Positions 12,896-47,377 of a DNA stretch of 64,000 nucleotides are shown piece by piece. The notes under the pieces are model-generated. The model ran no database searches and had not been told where the DNA came from. It worked only from the letters and a program-made list of their open reading frames with translations. A program made the translations under genes and the position numbers. The stretch is from Thermoanaerobacterium sp. RBIITD (lineage in GTDB: Bacteria > Bacillota > Thermoanaerobacteria > Thermoanaerobacterales > Thermoanaerobacteraceae), in assembly GCF_900205865.1 (NCBI RefSeq), contig NZ_LT906662.1, forward strand, positions 434,001 to 498,000, given 5' to 3'. Each line of letters starts with the position of its first letter. The stretch's first letter is position 1.

Positions 12896-13026
12896 GTTAT
12901 ATTTCATAACCCTTTAAAAAATATTTTGAAGGCTTTTAAATGGCTATTACCATAGTATTTTTAAGTTCATAGTGGTATAATCTAATAGTAAATGATTTAA
13001 AAAATCATATAGTTAGCGTTTTAATT

Positions 13027-13115
13027 CCACTAGGGGTGCTCGCCAGAGCTGAGAGAAAGGTGCGTCCTTTCAACCCTTGAACTTGATCCGGTTAGGACCG
13101 GCGTAGGGAAGTGGT
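13027..13115 (+). ncRNA. TPP riboswitch (THI element)
   Basis: All conserved blocks are present: GGGGTGC, the GCTGAGAG thi-box, ACCCTTGAAC, TGATCCGGTTAG, and ACCGGCGTAGGGAAGTGG. It binds thiamin pyrophosphate and switches off thiC. It lies directly upstream of a terminator-like hairpin and thiC. Confidence 0.97.
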
Positions 13116-13116
13116 T

Positions 13117-13150
13117 AAACCATGTGCCTTGCGGTCCATGGTTTTTATTT
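13117..13150 (+). terminator. Riboswitch-controlled terminator
   Basis: An 8-bp stem AAACCATG/CATGGTTT (13117-13124 and 13137-13144) is followed by a T-rich run. Its 5' side abuts the aptamer's closing stem, as expected for an expression platform that terminates when TPP is bound. Confidence 0.8.
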
Positions 13151-23289: not shown

Positions 23290-23690
23290 CTCCACAAGTG
23301 ACGAGGGTTCTGTTTGCTTGAAGGTGGTGATAGTTCAGGCTTTGTGTCGTCTCAACCTTTTCCCCTATTCTAAACCGTACGTGAGACTTTCGCCTCACAC
23401 GGCTTTCCACCGATTAGTTCCTAATGACACAGATTTTAGTGTTACCACTATCACCTGTCTGTAATAATTCCTTCATAATAATTGTTATTCCTTAAACTGT
23501 CCTTCGAAATCTATCTTGTTGTTTATATACATAAGGTATCGCTTCCTTATGGTTCATTACCCATATTTCAGGGACTTTCAAGAATTAGCATTTTGAGAAT
23601 TATTACAAGTGTTAACCGCCTGGTATCCTTCGCCATTGTCCTATGTTTCCATAGCGAGTACTAACGGATCTTTAATCATATCTTTCTCCT
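23290..23690 (-). mobile_element. Group II intron 3' relic with domain V
   Basis: 23372-23405 (minus) forms a typical 34-nt domain V: it begins AAGCCGTG with the catalytic AGC, has a GCGAAAGT tetraloop and ends ACGTACGGTTT. The upstream GGTGGAAAGCC context and the following stem fit the 3' end of an intron. No reverse-transcriptase gene remains. Upstream sequence to 23690 looks like degraded intron. Confidence 0.7.
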
Positions 23691-39929: not shown

Positions 39930-40130
39930 ATGGATAAAAAATTATTAAGACTTCCTGAAGTGGCAGAAATATTAGATTTAAAGGAAGACAGAGTATATGC
40001 TTTGGCAAGAGAAGGCATTTTGCCTGTGGTTCATGTAGGCCGCCAGCTACGAGTAGATCCCGATAAATTACAAGAATGGATTAACAATGGTGGAAAAGCA
40101 TATAATGGCGGCTGGAAAAAATCAAGTTAA
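39930..40130 (+). CDS. Excisionase-like HTH protein
   Basis: 66 residues with the MerR/AlpA-type winged-helix pattern LLRLPEVAEILDLKEDRVYA and a VGRQLRVDPDKLQEWI end, as in phage and island excisionases or activators. A strong AAGGAGGTG precedes it. A frameshifted homologue lies at 36450-36649. Confidence 0.82.
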   Translation: MDKKLLRLPEVAEILDLKEDRVYALAREGILPVVHVGRQLRVDPDKLQEWINNGGKAYNGGWKKSS

Positions 40131-40166: not shown

Positions 40167-40217
40167 ATGGACAAAAATACCATAGAAAAATCTATGGCAA
40201 ATAAAAAAATAAATTGA
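40167..40217 (+). CDS. 16-aa ORF coupled to the primase gene
   Basis: ATG after AAGGAAGG, ending TTGA where TTG is the primase start (4-bp overlap). The peptide (MDKNTIEKSMANKKIN) is unlikely to have its own function. It probably couples translation of the primase gene, which has only a TTG start. Confidence 0.45.
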   Translation: MDKNTIEKSMANKKIN

Positions 40218-40813
40218 GTACTAAATATACTATAAGTAATGTGTTTAAATATGTCAAATCTAATATTTCCCTATTACAGGCTATAGAACTTTACGGTTTT
40301 ATGCCTGTAAAAAAAGGTTCTCATTATTTTATACTTTGTCCATTTCATGCAGATAAGAATCCTTCCTTAGCAATCTATGAAGATGTCTATCATTGCTTTG
40401 GGTGCCAAGCCCATGGCGATGTTATAGACTTTGTTTCAAGATATTTTAACTTAACACAGCCAGAGGCATTAGAAAAGCTTGCACAGGATTTCGGCATAAA
40501 TCTACCCAATGAAAAGCAAAAAAAGAAATTCAAAAGACAAGCTCTTAAAATGCGAAATGACGACAAGCTATATAAAGAATACATTCGCAAATACAATGAA
40601 GTATATGACTACTTATGTAAGCTTAATCAGTTATACACAAAAATAAAGCAAGTTGTTGAAAATCCTGAAGACATAAATACACCTGAATTTATTGAAGCAT
40701 GTCATATGCAGGACTTAATACAGTACTGGATAGATTTACTCCTTGAAGGCAGCACCGAAGACAAAATACACGTAATAAAGGAGGTGTTAGATTGGAAAGC
40801 AAAGATGAAATAA
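40214..40813 (+). CDS. CHC2 zinc-finger primase-like protein
   Basis: 199 residues. The N-terminal CHC2 zinc finger of DnaG-type primases is clear: LCPFHADKNPSL and VYHCFGCQAHGDVIDFV. The TOPRIM catalytic domain is missing, so this is a stand-alone finger domain, usual in islands and phages where the polymerase/helicase part is separate. The TTG start overlaps the 16-aa ORF, and the end overlaps the helicase gene by 22 bp. Confidence 0.87.
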   Translation: MSTKYTISNVFKYVKSNISLLQAIELYGFMPVKKGSHYFILCPFHADKNPSLAIYEDVYHCFGCQAHGDVIDFVSRYFNLTQPEALEKLAQDFGINLPNEKQKKKFKRQALKMRNDDKLYKEYIRKYNEVYDYLCKLNQLYTKIKQVVENPEDINTPEFIEACHMQDLIQYWIDLLLEGSTEDKIHVIKEVLDWKAKMK

Positions 40814-42667
40814 TTAAAGCAATAAAAGAGGCACATGCTGAGCCTTTATTCAATGAAGAAAGCGAACAAGAACATTTTTCTCCATATGAAATAAGCAAAA
40901 ACATGATTTACCACGTAAAGATAACGAAAGATGGAGTTGCATACATGCCACTGTGCAATTTTGAAGCACATATCGCTGAAGAAATCATTAAAGACGACGG
41001 CTTAGAAACAAAGACATACTTTAGAATTAAAGGTACAACAAAAAATGGCACTCCTTTAAAAGAGATAATTGTACAATCAGATAAATTCGCAGGCTTAAAC
41101 TGGGTAACTGCAAACTGGGGAAATCGAGCCATAATATACGCAGGAAGCAGCATAAAAGATCATTTAAGAACTGCAATACAAATCTTAAGTGGCGATAGTG
41201 TGAAAAGAAGAACGATATATACGCATTTAGGCTGGAGAAAAATAAATAATAAATGGGTCTATCTATACAATGGTGGTGCAATAAGTCAATATGGAGAAGA
41301 AAACAATATAGAAGTAGAACTGGAAAGCTGCCTTAAAGATTACAGACTTGAATTGCCAAAAGATGACGATGAATTAAAAGATTGTATTTCGAAATCATTG
41401 GAATTTTTAAATTTAGCTAAGCCGGAAATAACTTTCCCGTTTTTAGCTGGAATATATTTAGCACCATTAGGAGAAATGTTAAACATCGATATGAGTCTAT
41501 TTATAGCAGGTCCAACTGGTAGTCAAAAAAGCGAAATAACTGCCTTAGCGCAGTCACATTATGGTCGAAATTTTAACGGCAAGAATTTACCTACCAGTTG
41601 GGAAAGCACAGAAAACTTCCTTGAAAAATTATCATTCCTAGCAAAAGATGCGGTGCTTACTATAGATGATTTTGCACCGCATGGAAGTATTGGAGACATT
41701 CAAAAATTAAACAAAAAGGCAGATTTTATTTTCCGAAATCAAGGCAATGGCTCAGGTAAAGGTCGAATGAACAGTGATATATCTTTAAGACCTTCATACA
41801 AATCAAAGACATTATTAATTTCCAGCGGTGAAGATGTACCAACTGGACAGAGTCTAGTTGCAAGACTTGTTGTTATAGAGATTAACCATGGTGATATCGA
41901 TCTTGAAAAACTAAGCATCTTACAGGAATATGCAAGAAATGGCGTATTTGCGAAGGCGATGGGTGGTTATATCAAGTGGTTAAGCACAAGAATTGACTTG
42001 TACAAAAAAACATTGCCAAAAAAGAAAAACGCATTAAGAGACTCAATACGCAAAAGATATTGTATGCCACGACAGAACACCAGACAATATTTCACACCTT
42101 TTGATAGGTTTAGAGGTATTCCTCATATTTGCTAAAGAAAAAGGAGTAGTATCGGAAGATGAGGCAAAAGACATTTACGGAAATGGATTCAATGCTTTAC
42201 TGAAAATTGGTGAGCAACAATCGCAGTTTCTAAAATCAGAAGACTTAATCGATAGCTTTTATTCTCTGTTAATTGCAGCTATAACAGCAGGAAAGGCACA
42301 TGTAAGCAAAGCTGAAGATGATGGAATACCAGAAAATCCAGAGCAATGGGGCTGGATTAAAGATGAAAAAGGCGTTTGGAAGGAAAAAGGCACTTTAATA
42401 GGTTGGATCTCAAAAGATTATCTTTTGTTAGAAGGTGATATTGCATACATGATTGTGGAAGAAATGGCCAAAAAGCAAAATACTACACTGCCTGTATCAC
42501 AAAGGACTTTATGGAAGAGAATGCAGCAGCGAGGAATGCTGATAACCGAAGAAGGCAGAAATACAGTAAGAGAATATATAAACGGCAAGCAAAAAAGAGT
42601 CAAAAAAATTCCTCTAGATAAGTTATATTTTATAACTGGACTTAGTGGTCTAGACCCAGTTAAATAG
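40792..42667 (+). CDS. DUF927-type primase-associated helicase/ATPase, one frameshift
   Basis: About 624 residues if a frameshift at the A4 run near 42052 is corrected. The first frame (to 42135) carries Walker A GPTGSQKSE (Gln before Lys is unusual but occurs in this group), an IDDFAPHG Walker B-like segment and VARLVVIEI. After correction the chain continues DIVCHDRTPDNISHLLIGLE. The second frame (from 42101) gives the C-terminal part with SQRTLWKRMQQRGML. It pairs with the CHC2 protein as the island's replication module. The break may be a sequencing error. Confidence 0.78.
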
Positions 42668-42922: not shown

Positions 42923-43189
42923 ATGAATTGCAACAACGAAGAAATGACTCGTGATGATTTTGATTCATTAGCCGGACTTTTAATACAAAAAAATCGTGCT
43001 TTAATGAAAATTATTGATAATAACCAAGATGCCAAATATTATAAAAAAATCATCGACATAATCGACTCTTATATATATGAGATAATTGGTATTGAAGAAG
43101 AAAATATAAACAAATTAGTCGACGCCATTTTAGAATTACTTGTAAAAATTCAAAAAGAAGAAGAAATAACGCAAAAGGAAAATAAATAA
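42923..43189 (+). CDS. Hypothetical 88-aa protein
   Basis: Acidic, helical small protein (TRDDFDSLAGLLIQKNRALM) ending in a Lys/Glu-rich tail. Very strong GAAGGAGGTG ribosome site. Not recognised. It lies between the iterons and the structured-RNA region. Confidence 0.6.
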   Translation: MNCNNEEMTRDDFDSLAGLLIQKNRALMKIIDNNQDAKYYKKIIDIIDSYIYEIIGIEEENINKLVDAILELLVKIQKEEEITQKENK

Positions 43190-43253
43190 AATCTTTAGTT
43201 ACTGCTAACCATACCCTATGCTTTAAACCGCATAAGGTATTTAAATATTTATA

Positions 43254-43282
43254 TTGAATTTTCTGAATATTTGTTATATAAT
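43254..43282 (+). promoter_or_regulatory. Promoter of the structured RNA
   Basis: TTGAAT (43254-43259), a 17-bp spacer, and TATAAT (43277-43282). The expected start is near 43290. No ORF of useful size follows; the next sequence is the structured region. Confidence 0.72.
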
Positions 43283-43289
43283 AATGTTG

Positions 43290-43860
43290 GATAAAAAGAA
43301 AACAAGCATAAAAATAAAATGCGCTATGCATCATTCTCTTTCCTCTACGGTTGAAATATCCGGACCTTCAGAAAGCATTTTAGCGAGTATCAGAGGATTA
43401 ACTTTCTGCCGCTAAAGTTGATTCCTTTGCATCTATCCGGATATTTCATAAAAGAGAATGTAATGGAAGGTTGCTTGATTTTCTTGAAACTGCTTATATA
43501 AGCATAAATGACCTCATGTATTTACACCAGCGGCAAAGCCCTATGGCTCACGGGCTTGGATATGAGCAGACGGAATTTTAAAGCATCAGTTATCCGACAT
43601 GATAAAATACACCACAGCAATCTCATAAGCTATATCGCAAAAATCACTGCAGAAGTAATTTCTATCATGCTATGCGGATAATGCATTTAGAGAAGATAAA
43701 GCGGCTTACCGGCTTTATCTACGACATAATCTTGACTGGTAATGATGTTTTAACAAAGGCTAAGTTTACTTTATAGATATAAAACTTACTCACGCAGCGA
43801 TAATAAGGGAATATAAACGGCGAAGCTGGTTATATTCCTCAGTTAAGCACATCTTTTAGT
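43290..43860 (+). ncRNA. Candidate large structured non-coding RNA (~570 nt)
   Basis: There are no long ORFs on either strand, but complementary segments are abundant. They are a 10-bp helix 43332-43341/43451-43460; a nested perfect 12-bp helix 43353-43364/43436-43447; inside it an interleaved pair CAGAAAG/CTTTCTG (43369, 43402) and TTTAGCG/CGCTAAA (43379, 43410), which is a pseudoknot; 43536-43541/43552-43557; a two-part helix 43590-43604/43663-43681; 43694-43702/43712-43720 (9 bp); and 43808-43816/43830-43838 (9 bp). The size and the phage/island context recall the ornate RNA classes ROOL and GOLLD. Membership is not shown. Confidence 0.65.
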
Positions 43861-43867
43861 ATTATTC

Positions 43868-44134
43868 AGAAATGGAAGGTGGTCACTTTGACCACTTTCC
43901 AAATACAGAAAATAGAAAGCTCATACTGGAAAATTTTCGGAAATTTCAAGTGGCAACTTTTGCTCCTTGACAAATACAAATAATGGAAATCAAAAAACAG
44001 CAGAAAAAATATCTAAAACTGTAGAATATGCGCCAAGAACAATAAGAAACTGTGGCAATTTTGCAGAAACATTTGAAATGACTTTATCAATTATGTTAGA
44101 AATATACTGCATTGATAACACCGGCTTTTATTGA
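43868..44134 (+). pseudogene. ParB-like/phage replisome gene remnant with hairpin repeats
   Basis: From 43982 the frame reads NGNQKTAEKISKTVEYAPRT, then IRNCGNFAETFEMT, the HTH part of ParB-like or phage replication-initiation proteins, ending at 44134. Upstream pieces are in other frames. The 5' part contains two copies (43868-43917, 43940-43995) of a hairpin repeat whose third, inverted copy is at 44392-44470. From 44135 to 44390 I see no gene. Confidence 0.45.
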
Positions 44135-44391
44135 TATTATGCCTTTAAAGGAAACATACTCGCTTAAAATGATAACTGACCTCTACTTTAAACATGAAAT
44201 ATGTTAACATTTTTTACACAATAATTCTATTTAAGTACTGTTATATGTGCTTTCATCACTGTTATCAATACAAATATTTTCTGCAATTTAAAATGGATAT
44301 GTAGATTATGGATTATTTCGTATTTTACCTATAAATAAAAGCAGAATTGACAGTTTTAGAACGTGCTGAAAATCTTAAAAGAAGAATGGAA

Positions 44392-44470
44392 ATGTTCATA
44401 TCTTCCATTATCTGTATTTGGAAAGTTGCAACTTTTGCAACTTTCCATTTCCGAAATTTTCCCAAATAGA
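44392..44470 (-). repeat. Third, inverted copy of the CTT-loop hairpin repeat
   Basis: The core is a perfect 12-bp stem GGAAAGTTGCAA/TTGCAACTTTCC around a CTT loop (44421-44447). The flanks match those of the copies at 43868 and 43945 in inverted orientation (CGGAAAT before, AAATACAGATAATGGAA after). The stems differ between copies yet stay paired. It ends just before the recombinase start. Confidence 0.55.
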
Positions 44471-44482
44471 GGAGTGATTTTA

Positions 44483-45376
44483 ATGGGCAGACAAGGAAGC
44501 ATTTTTTATAGGCTGCTTAACAATTTAAAAGAACAGCAATCATTTGGAAAAAGTAAATATGCTGTTAAGAAAAAGGCTAGAGAAGAAGCGATAAAGAACG
44601 GACTTCATGGTCAGGATGTATTTAATGCTATGAATGATGCAGTTTTTAATGCAGGTATCTTCTCTGTACAGACTTATGCAACTTATCGTAATGAAGTTAA
44701 AAAATTTGCTGATTGGTGCAAATCCAAAGGTGTAAAAAATAAAGATTTTGATAAAACAAAGGACATGGTATCAGACTATTTAAGTGAAAAAATATCACTG
44801 GGTCAATCAGCATGGTCTATAAAGGTTGCAAGAGCAGCTCTTAGAAAAGCATACAAAGATAATAGCCTCGCTGATGACATTAAAATACCTGAAAGAAAAT
44901 TAAAAGATATAACGAGATCAAGACTTGAAAGACCTGATGATAAAAAAATTAACTTGGACAACTACAAAGATTTAATAGATTTCTGTAAATCATCTGGCTT
45001 AAGAAGGCGTGAAGTATCAGCTATCACTGCAAATGATATTTATAAAAAAGATGATAGACTATATGTTCATGTCAAAAACGGTAAAGGCGGTAAGACAAGA
45101 GAAGTTCCTGTACTGAAAAAATATCAGCCTAAAATAGAAAGCATATTAGAAAAAGCTAAGGATAGAGGAAATGAAAGACTATTTACAAGAATTCCAGAAC
45201 ATCTTGATATACACAGCATGAGACGTGAATACGCTCAAGACAGGTTTATAGAAATCAGAGGAAGGCAATATAAAAAACATACAAGAGATAAAAGAGATAG
45301 AGAAGCAGTAAGAGAAGTAAGCAGAAATTTAGGTCATAACCGTGAAAATGTAACAGTATCACATTATTTGTCATAA
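44483..45376 (+). CDS. Tyrosine recombinase, internal to the element
   Basis: 297 residues. A core-binding domain (about 65-150) precedes the catalytic domain with all key residues: Arg in SGLRRREVSA, HSMRREYAQ (HxxR), LGHNRENVT and the C-terminal SHYLS tyrosine. It differs from the tRNA-adjacent integrase in sequence and lacks an arm-binding N-domain. The ATG at 44483 follows GAGGAGTG. Adjacent hairpin repeats could be its substrates (inference). Confidence 0.85.
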   Translation: MGRQGSIFYRLLNNLKEQQSFGKSKYAVKKKAREEAIKNGLHGQDVFNAMNDAVFNAGIFSVQTYATYRNEVKKFADWCKSKGVKNKDFDKTKDMVSDYLSEKISLGQSAWSIKVARAALRKAYKDNSLADDIKIPERKLKDITRSRLERPDDKKINLDNYKDLIDFCKSSGLRRREVSAITANDIYKKDDRLYVHVKNGKGGKTREVPVLKKYQPKIESILEKAKDRGNERLFTRIPEHLDIHSMRREYAQDRFIEIRGRQYKKHTRDKRDREAVREVSRNLGHNRENVTVSHYLS

Positions 45377-45415: not shown

Positions 45416-45757
45416 AGTGGAAATATACCCACATTTTTTTGTTACTAACATCCATCTTTTTGCAATTTAAAACTAATTCACCTTTAAAAAACTTTTTATT
45501 TCCACCTTTGATTATATTATGCCACATAACAAATAAAATGTCAATAGAATTTTATAAATATTTTTACTATTTTATCAAATATATTTTCTTTACTTCAAGC
45601 TTCCAAAAAAATAGCACGTCTGCGAAGAATGAGCAGAGGTGCGTTATAAATTCGGATTTTTGATTTGAGCAGAGCGAAAATGAAAAATCCGTACCGTATT
45701 TTATAAATCTAATTTCTACTGTTCAACATGATAGTGGTGGAAATTACTTTTTAAAAT
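45416..45757. other. Spacer with two further hairpins
   Basis: GCAC-g-TCTGC/GCAGA-g-GTGC near 45616-45646, and CGGATTTTT/AAAAATCCG near 45653-45692. Both could be terminators facing the peptide locus. No gene was seen. Confidence 0.5.
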
Positions 45758-46346: not shown

Positions 46347-47377
46347 ATGAATAGAATTTTAAAAGCTCCTGAAATGGTAACTTGGGAAATAACAAGTAAA
46401 TGCAACTTAAAATGCAAACATTGTTCTAATTCTTTAGGAACTGATAACATTTCTGATTTAACTTTAGAAAAATGCAAATTAATTATTGATAAATTATTTG
46501 AAGCTGGTGTGTTTAAAATTAGTATCGAAGGTGGTGAACCTTTTGTCAGAAATGATATTTTTCAAATTTTATCATATTTAAATAAAAAAGGTTATATCCC
46601 TCGCATAACAACAAATGCTACGTTGATTACTGATAATATTGCCAAAGAGTTGTCCAAATATAATATTGGATTAGTGCAAATTAGTTTAGATGGACCAAAT
46701 AAAATAGTTTATTCAGGAATAAGGAGATCAAGAGAAGCTTTTACAAAGGCTTTAAATGGGATTAATAACTTAAAAAAGTATAATATTAAAATATCGATTG
46801 CTATGGTGTTAATGAGAGAGAATATTGATTATATTTTAGATTTGTTAAACTTAGCAAAATCACTAAATGTTGATGCCCTGTTGGTAGAGGTAATAGATCT
46901 TTTTGCCCTACTTCACAACAGCTAAAAAAAGCTTACGAACTTATATTAGATTACGAAAGTAAAAATGGTAATTTAATGATTATAAAACCACAAAAGCTAC
47001 TTTCAGTTTTATTAAAAAATGATAAAGAAAACAATAAAATTAGCTTATTACAATATATTAACCATGAAAATAAAGTAATATGTGAAGCTGGAAACGTGAT
47101 TGCTCATATAAAATCTAATGGCGATGTTACCCCTTGTGTTTATTTTAGAGAGAAAAGCTTTATATGCGGAAATATTCTATGCCAAGATTTTACAGATATT
47201 TGGATAAACTCAAATACGATGAACCAATTTAGGAAATTAGAATCCATTCAAGGTAAATGTAACAAATGTAAAATTTTTAGTACGTGTATGGGCGGCTGCA
47301 GAGCATATGCATATTATACTACAGGCTTTTTAAATGGATTTGATAATAGGTGTTGGAATATTGAGGAGGAGAATTAA
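46347..47377 (+). CDS. Radical SAM/SPASM peptide-modifying enzyme, one frameshift
   Basis: About 343 residues if one T is added to the T5 run at 46900. The first frame (46347-46925) has CNLKCKHC (CX3CX2C, about 18-25), a GGEP motif and LDGPNK. The second frame (readable from 46906; ATG-bounded from 46976) has the SPASM domain with VTPCVYFREK, KCNKCKIFSTCMGGC and a final NRCWN. It is PqqE/sactisynthase-like. It is coupled with a PqqD-like protein and exporter. The break at a homopolymer may be a sequencing error; otherwise the locus is inactive. Confidence 0.8.

What the first reader, a model, noticed from the sequence alone, without database searches (positions are those of the whole stretch)
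43254..43900. Promoter-driven ~570-nt RNA with nested long helices and a pseudoknot on a mobile island
Seen: a consensus promoter (TTGAAT-17-TATAAT) feeds a region without useful ORFs but with many exact complementary segments. They include a perfect 12-bp helix (43353-43364/43436-43447) inside a 10-bp helix (43332-43341/43451-43460). These enclose two interleaved pairings, CAGAAAG...TTTAGCG...CTTTCTG...CGCTAAA, which is the order of a pseudoknot. More stems follow at 43590-43681, 43694-43720 and 43808-43838. Known: large ornate RNAs (ROOL, GOLLD, OLE, HEARO) sit in phages and islands of Firmicutes. Inference: this is a member of one of these classes, most likely ROOL by size and context, or a new class.
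Basis: partly seen in the sequence, partly recalled or inferred. Interest (0 to 1): 0.88.

Follow-up and report, generated by a model that had tools for sequence, protein, structure and literature searches.

The report
Large structured RNA beside a recombinase
A mobile DNA island of a heat-loving bacterium carries what looks like a new kind of large folded RNA, about 570 letters long, next to the gene of the enzyme thought to move or maintain the island; folded RNA-like regions of different sequence sit before some relatives of that enzyme in other heat-loving bacteria, which hints that RNA and enzyme work together.

Summary
The observation largely holds. At window 43254-43850 a consensus promoter leads into ~560 nt without a frame conserved in all copies but with the listed helices. 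Six copies in three genomes of the genus (intact ones 93-96% identical to the window's) all precede the same tyrosine recombinase (window 44483-45373). The RNA is more conserved than that gene's fourfold-degenerate sites (78-88%), the promoter is identical in all six, and the aligned fold beats column shuffles (z about -5; recombinase control -1). The pseudoknot is weak: one helix is complete only in the window copy. No Rfam family matches; ROOL was tested and not met. A second genus has an 840-nt region sharing two 3' segments. Relatives of the recombinase on Caldicellulosiruptor and, less clearly, Ammonifex plasmids are also preceded by conserved structured regions of unrelated sequence (Caldicellulosiruptor: 85% identity versus 44% at fourfold sites). 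Several other relatives lack one. I read it as a new class of large RNA tied to a recombinase clade, most likely acting with the recombinase in element maintenance or recombination; a very long regulatory leader is the main rival. No transcript evidence was available.

The parts
43254..43282 (+). sigma-70-type promoter TTGAAT-17-TATAAT of the RNA
   Evidence: identical with its spacer in 6 of 6 copies; promoter-like sites at the corresponding place in L039, L021 and L035
43289..43855 (+). structured non-coding RNA, about 565 nt (5' end inferred from the promoter, 3' end from where conservation stops; a run of 4-7 T follows in the six copies)
43296..43485 (+). 5' domain: outer stem AAGAAAACAAGCA/TGCTTGATTTTCTT enclosing 43332-43341/43451-43460 and 43352-43364/43436-43448; possible pseudoknot inside (second helix not fully conserved)
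43590..43681 (+). stem TTATCCG/CGGATAA with CATGATA/TATCATG
43685..43765 (+). conserved core: hairpin 43695-43719 plus ACGACATAA and ACTGGTAATGATGTTTTAACAAA; shared with another genus (L021 7331-7410)
43808..43838 (+). terminal hairpin GGAATATAAACGGCGAAGCTGGTTATATTCC, also found in L021
44483..45376 (+). tyrosine recombinase (Phage_integrase PF00589, Phage_int_SAM_1 PF02899; its plasmid relative is called Xer-like in print)
43865..44464 (+). fast-changing spacer between RNA and recombinase with inverted copies of a GGAAAGTTGCAACTTTTGC-like element; missing in the second copy of the own genome
45609..45696 (+). folded repeat just after the recombinase, dispersed in the family's genomes
39930..40130 (+). 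island gene, HTH_17 (excisionase-like)
40214..42135 (+). island genes: CHC2 zinc-finger (primase-like) protein and DUF927 protein

Best explanation
The region encodes a large structured RNA from its own promoter (inferred), of a new class that travels with a clade of Xer-like tyrosine recombinases on plasmids and plasmid-like islands. I propose that the RNA folds into a compact particle and works with the recombinase encoded just downstream, as an RNA partner that helps it act on the element (multimer resolution, excision or copy maintenance). Shown: conservation of sequence, conservation of the fold above shuffles, a conserved promoter sequence, fixed position before the recombinase, co-occurrence, and a similar arrangement with unrelated sequences before some related recombinases. 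Inferred: transcription, RNA-protein partnership, and the role in element maintenance.
For: In 24 genomes of the order, the 4 with the RNA (G000, G003, G006, G011) are the 4 with the recombinase at E 1e-30; two stray RNA matches are set aside: G012, inside a 688-aa ORF, and G007, 49 nt at E 0.009, not looked into. All seven RNA loci lie before the recombinase on its strand. Selection: RNA 93-96% identical versus 78-88% at fourfold sites in four intact pairs; Caldicellulosiruptor pair 85% versus 44%. Structure, alignment z against column shuffles: window family -5.0 and -4.65; Caldicellulosiruptor pair -8.7 and -12.1 (144 pairs, 6 changed on both sides); Ammonifex block -4.5; recombinase controls -1.0, +0.7, and for Ammonifex -4.0 (whole) or -2.0/-3.5 (halves). 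In all three the sense strand has the lower z. Precedent for an effect on plasmids: deleting a long RNA of Lactobacillus salivarius lowered megaplasmid copy number (PMC5643018, passages). For pBAS2 the recombinase gene is stated to be necessary for replication and a 1.4-kb non-coding region is noted (PMC5779722, passages); plasmids with 531 or 851 bp of pBAS2 gave no transformants (PMC3643907, passages and one section).
Against: No transcript seen. Covariation in the window family is nearly nil (1 of 128 pairs). In the window family the antisense strand has slightly lower raw energies although the higher z in the alignment. Relatives of the recombinase without such a region exist: G220 (about 140 nt upstream), G246 (about 55 nt), two Streptococcus suis plasmids whose upstream regions fold no better than shuffles (z +0.25 each), and pRGI00233, whose upstream stretch reads as coding by eye. 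The Ammonifex case is not separated from its control. The regions of window, Caldicellulosiruptor and Ammonifex are not detectably homologous. No convincing guide-like match between the RNA and the element end was found.
Confidence: 0.42

Rival explanations
1. A very long 5' leader that controls expression of the recombinase in cis (attenuation or translation control).
For: Same strand and directly upstream; in the second copy of the own genome only about 15 nt lie between the last hairpin and the stretch that carries the ribosome-binding site, and in Caldicellulosiruptor about 35-60 nt lie between the conserved region and the start codon. L021 has a terminator-like hairpin inside the region.
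Against: In the window and the four other copies with an intact gene a fast-changing spacer of about 0.6-1.4 kb lies between RNA and gene. The pBAS2 shuttle vector was made by linearising the plasmid 'just upstream' of the recombinase ORF and adding about 4 kb, and it replicates (PMC3643907, passages; exact cut not seen). A length of 560-840 nt is extreme for a leader (recalled).
Confidence: 0.25
2. A trans-acting large RNA that merely travels on the element, ROOL- or GOLLD-like, with no link to the recombinase.
For: Size and mobile context resemble ROOL and GOLLD; for ROOL no protein partner has been identified and for both the function is unknown (PMC12286853, passages).
Against: Fixed neighbour: the recombinase in all seven loci, and other structured regions at the same place before some relatives of it.
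Confidence: 0.18
3. A structured DNA site rather than an RNA: single-strand origin, folded recombination site, or cer/psi-like accessory region (the published suggestion for the pBAS2 non-coding region).
For: Plasmid context of the relatives; the published view of pBAS2 (PMC5779722, passages).
Against: A promoter-like site leads into the region in the window family, L021 and both Caldicellulosiruptor plasmids. The lower z is on the recombinase-sense strand. In pATHE02 the rep gene lies on the other strand, which by the usual layout of rolling-circle plasmids (recalled) would put a single-strand origin on the other strand.
Confidence: 0.1
4. Chance folding in non-functional spacer.
For: A single-sequence z of -3 is reached by 2 of 40 background windows.
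Against: Conservation above fourfold sites, alignment z, invariant promoter.
Confidence: 0.05

Closest known systems
ROOL RNA (RF03087)
   Same: about 570 nt, ornate, on mobile elements of Bacillota (context recalled and PMC12286853, passages), no partner known
   Different: no covariance-model match; nearest tRNA genes are about 10 kb away; next to a tyrosine recombinase
OLE RNA
   Same: about 600 nt, Gram-positive extremophiles and anaerobes (PMC9723947, start of abstract in listing); gene lies near that of a partner protein (recalled)
   Different: no Rfam match; mobile element; different neighbour gene
HEARO (omega RNA) with IscB
   Same: structured RNA directly upstream of a mobile-element enzyme gene
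   Different: smaller (211 positions); no match here, while the library finds HEARO before iscB in L054
Bridge RNA of IS110 elements
   Same: non-coding RNA encoded with a recombinase (PMC11208158, start of abstract in listing)
   Different: other recombinase type (recalled for IS110; here), much larger RNA, no convincing guide-like match
pBAS2/pATHE02 Xer-like recombinase and its 1.4-kb non-coding region
   Same: its recombinase is a relative of the one here; conserved structured region directly upstream
   Different: suggested in print as an ArgR/cer-like DNA region, no RNA proposed in the passages seen; no sequence similarity to the window RNA

Membership tests
ROOL | match to covariance model RF03087 | tested here: not met
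   not listed to E 10 in 43180-44500; own genome, nothing at E 1; control genomes silent too
ROOL | RNA-only cage | not testable with these tools
   needs cryo-EM
GOLLD, OLE, HEARO and the other Rfam 15 families | match at the curated score | tested here: not met
   (whole window); that GOLLD and OLE are in the library is recalled, HEARO is shown to be
IS110 bridge RNA | IS110-type (DEDD) recombinase beside the RNA (recalled definition) | tested here: not met
   tyrosine recombinase
IS110 bridge RNA | loops complementary to donor and target DNA | tested here: inconclusive
   6 of 7 loci (L019 left out), RNA against 320-424 nt after the recombinase: longest exact matches 12 nt, an A/T-only run near RNA position 24 in L016 and L018; other matches 10 nt. 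True insertion ends were not mapped
Structured RNA class (comparative criteria) | compensatory changes | tested here: inconclusive
   window family 1 of 128 pairs changed on both sides; Caldicellulosiruptor 6 of 144, two sequences
Structured RNA class (comparative criteria) | no coding frame kept in all copies | tested here: met
   (a 57-aa frame is shared by 3 of 6 copies only); length differences of 1 and 2 nt

The most novel reading that the evidence does not exclude
A tyrosine recombinase clade that works as a ribonucleoprotein: its members with this arrangement need a 500-900-nt structured RNA encoded just upstream, which replaces the usual accessory DNA-bending proteins or selects the DNA site.
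Probability: 0.12. Interest if true: 0.95.

Novelty: new variant of a known kind. Interest (0 to 1): 0.66.

Why it matters
Large ornate bacterial RNAs are few, and the functions of the phage-borne ones, ROOL and GOLLD, are unknown (PMC12286853, passages). A class fixed to one recombinase clade, with a relative on the small, genetically tractable plasmid pBAS2, would make the question what a large ornate RNA does directly testable. None of the listings of the searches made here showed an RNA tied to a tyrosine recombinase; most subscription papers are not in that library.

Tried and rejected
Rejected: ROOL or another Rfam class. Rejected as homologue: the G012 hit, which lies in a 688-aa ORF. 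Rejected: a C. bescii chromosomal 33-nt match to the Caldicellulosiruptor RNA, next to a hairpin. Rejected: a recombination junction inside the 3' end of the recombinase gene; the remnants look like decayed genes. Left open: integron-like arrays of the folded repeat; ORFs beside it in four loci do not look like cassettes by eye.

Viral contigs: a 20-base core pattern gave 0, and two recombinase searches gave 4 and 15 pattern matches but no relative. Genome contigs: only two relatives, both T. saccharolyticum NTOU1. Model R1 in 398 genomes of the phylum (stricter filters): strong only in the own genome; 7 other genomes with E 0.0003-0.03 per genome, fewer than chance would give at the cut-off of 0.05, not followed up. 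Of the 22 plasmid records, 11 were read (10 as records, one as L035). One search (398 genomes of the phylum, E 1e-35) found the recombinase family in 7; G003, G006 and G011 are not among them, perhaps not drawn. Ammonifex is weak: recombinase control -4.0 against -4.5, and the last 620 nt alone give z -1.9, though 881 nt give -4.0. The pRGI00233 z of -3.2 is from a stretch that reads as coding, so a z of -3 alone is not used as evidence. One search used a wrongly recalled accession for GOLLD (it is a group II intron family). The 104-motif paper PMC2864571 was seen only in a listing.

Full report
What is there. Its relative G003, of the same genus, has contigs of the same lengths (11683 and 31764) as those of Thermoanaerobacterium saccharolyticum NTOU1 that carry the recombinase, so the window is very probably from Thermoanaerobacterium (inference). 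The region follows an 88-aa ORF without Pfam match and island genes for an HTH_17 protein, a CHC2 zinc-finger protein and a DUF927 protein, and precedes a tyrosine recombinase.

Homologues. The own genome holds a second copy (90%), and two other genomes of the genus hold two each (93-95%). All six precede the same recombinase gene. In the second own copy that gene is broken (2 TGA, 1 TAG, and a missing middle part) and about 15 nt separate the RNA from the block with the ribosome-binding site, whereas in the window a 631-nt spacer with inverted copies of a GGAAAGTTGCAACTTTTGC-like element lies between, and in the other four copies spacers of about 0.8-1.4 kb. Three of the five other copies (L017, L019, L020) share little or nothing of the window's upstream genes, so RNA and recombinase recur together in different surroundings. 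A seventh, distant copy lies in another genus of the family (G011, probably Thermoanaerobacter, recalled): an 840-nt region that folds strongly (z -4.9, 20 shuffles), shares window 43695-43761 and 43801-43837 and a weak match around the promoter (68% over 66 nt), has a TTGAAT-17-TATAAT site and precedes a recombinase of 72% identity. Across 24 genomes of the order the RNA and the recombinase (E 1e-30) co-occur in 4; in the other 20 neither is found, with two stray RNA matches set aside: one in G012 inside a 688-aa ORF, one in G007 at E 0.009 that was not looked into.

Selection and structure. Four copies with an intact gene are 95.7, 93.2, 93.7 and 93.9% identical to the window in the RNA, against 87.6, 78.4, 84.4 and 82.6% at fourfold-degenerate sites of the recombinase (86-90 sites). 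The promoter with its spacer is invariant in six of six. The consensus fold of six has 128 pairs, z -5.0 against 40 column shuffles (control on five recombinase genes -1.0); with 24 shuffles the sense strand gave -4.65 and the antisense strand -3.43, with 7 and 23 broken pairs; the raw consensus energy is slightly lower on the antisense strand (-117.6 versus -113.7). Covariation proper is lacking (1 pair). The single-sequence fold alone would not convince: z -3.0 on the sense strand, -3.3 on the antisense, with 2 of 40 background windows at or below -3.

Beyond the family. Relatives of the recombinase (26-40% identity) are found in 22 plasmid records and, as a profile search at E 1e-35, in 7 of 398 sampled genomes of the phylum including the own. 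I looked at what precedes them in 11 of the 22 records and in the new genomes. Caldicellulosiruptor bescii pATHE02 (pBAS2) and the C. diazotrophicus plasmid: about 540 nt from a near-perfect promoter (11 and 12 of 12 matches) to about 35-60 nt before the recombinase, 85% identical while fourfold sites are 44% identical (88 sites) and the stretch before the promoter 71%; 144 consensus pairs, 12 changed on one side and 6 on both; z -8.7 (40 shuffles) and -12.1 (24 shuffles), antisense -5.7, recombinase control +0.7. With two sequences the absence of broken pairs is by construction. Ammonifex degensii pADEG01 and genome G348: up to about 900 and 1,180 nt before the recombinase, a 438-column block at 80% identity, z -4.5 sense, -2.5 antisense, but recombinase controls -4.0 for the whole gene and -2.0 and -3.5 for its halves, so this case is only suggestive. 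Natranaerobius (z -3.9), Flavonifractor (-2.9, with a Pistol ribozyme match at L057 1602-1674), Vibrio pSIO1 (-6.6) and two S. suis plasmids (-3.0 each; pair z -2.9 sense, -2.4 antisense) have long upstream regions of unclear status. Against the pattern: G220 and G246 have no room for an RNA, two other S. suis plasmids have regions that fold no better than shuffles (z +0.25), and in pRGI00233 the stretch reads as coding (by eye). Covariance models of the window core and of the Caldicellulosiruptor core find only their own families among 15 sources. So the statement is that several members of one recombinase clade are preceded by large structured regions that differ in sequence, not that all are.

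Mechanism. In known mobile elements a structured RNA encoded directly before an enzyme gene is often its working partner (omega RNA with IscB, bridge RNA with the IS110 recombinase, retron RNA with its reverse transcriptase; recalled). Here the neighbour is a Xer-like recombinase. For pBAS2 that recombinase is stated to be necessary for replication, citing earlier work, a 1.4-kb non-coding region is noted and read as a possible cer/psi-like site (PMC5779722, passages), and plasmids with only 531 or 851 bp of pBAS2 failed to transform (PMC3643907, one section and passages). The addition of about 4 kb just upstream of the recombinase ORF in the working vector pDCW89 speaks against an indispensable cis leader, with the caveat that I did not see the exact cut. 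Deletion of the L. salivarius long RNA lowered megaplasmid copy number; its authors allow that this may be indirect (PMC5643018, passages). I therefore favour an RNA that acts with the recombinase in element maintenance (0.42), ahead of a long leader (0.25), an unlinked ornate RNA (0.18) and a DNA site (0.10).

Novelty. Rfam gives no credible match to the window region, L021, both Caldicellulosiruptor plasmids or the Ammonifex region. Full-text searches of the held open library did not bring up such a class (listings; passages only of PMC11109978, PMC12286853, PMC5779722, PMC3643907 and PMC5643018, and one short section of PMC3643907). The paper on 224 candidate RNAs did not itself come up and most subscription papers are not held, so an earlier description cannot be excluded.

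Noticed in passing
window 45609-45696: Folded ~90-nt repeat (GCACGTCTGC...GCAGAGGTGC plus CGGATTTTT...AAAAATCCG) shortly after the recombinase in 6 of 7 loci (not L019); similar copies are dispersed in 17 of 20 genomes of the family, 1-7 each, often in clusters. Recombinase C-terminal remnants precede it in L091, L095 and L111; in L082 the stretch that follows the recombinase does. Landing site, scar or MITE-like element is open.
   Followed up: partly
window 43865-44464: Inverted copies of a palindromic element like GGAAAGTTGCAACTTTTGCAACTTTCC between RNA and recombinase; could be recombinase arm-type sites or an inserted element.
   Followed up: no
L057 1602-1674: Pistol ribozyme match (61.8 bits, cut-off 34.5) in the non-coding region before a relative of the recombinase on a Flavonifractor plasmid.
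   Followed up: no
L061 348-565: PAGEV RNA on the Vibrio plasmid pSIO1, which also carries a distant relative of the recombinase.
   Followed up: no
window 46347-47377: Two ORFs that look like halves of one radical-SAM/SPASM protein, followed by a 91-aa ORF and a transporter-like ORF; looks like a peptide-modification cluster (by eye).
   Followed up: no
window 13022-13126 and 23327-23407: TPP riboswitch (+) and a group II intron match (-).
   Followed up: no
L021 2651-5314: The island of the distant homologue encodes an 887-aa protein that looks like fused topoisomerase VI B and A parts (by eye).
   Followed up: no
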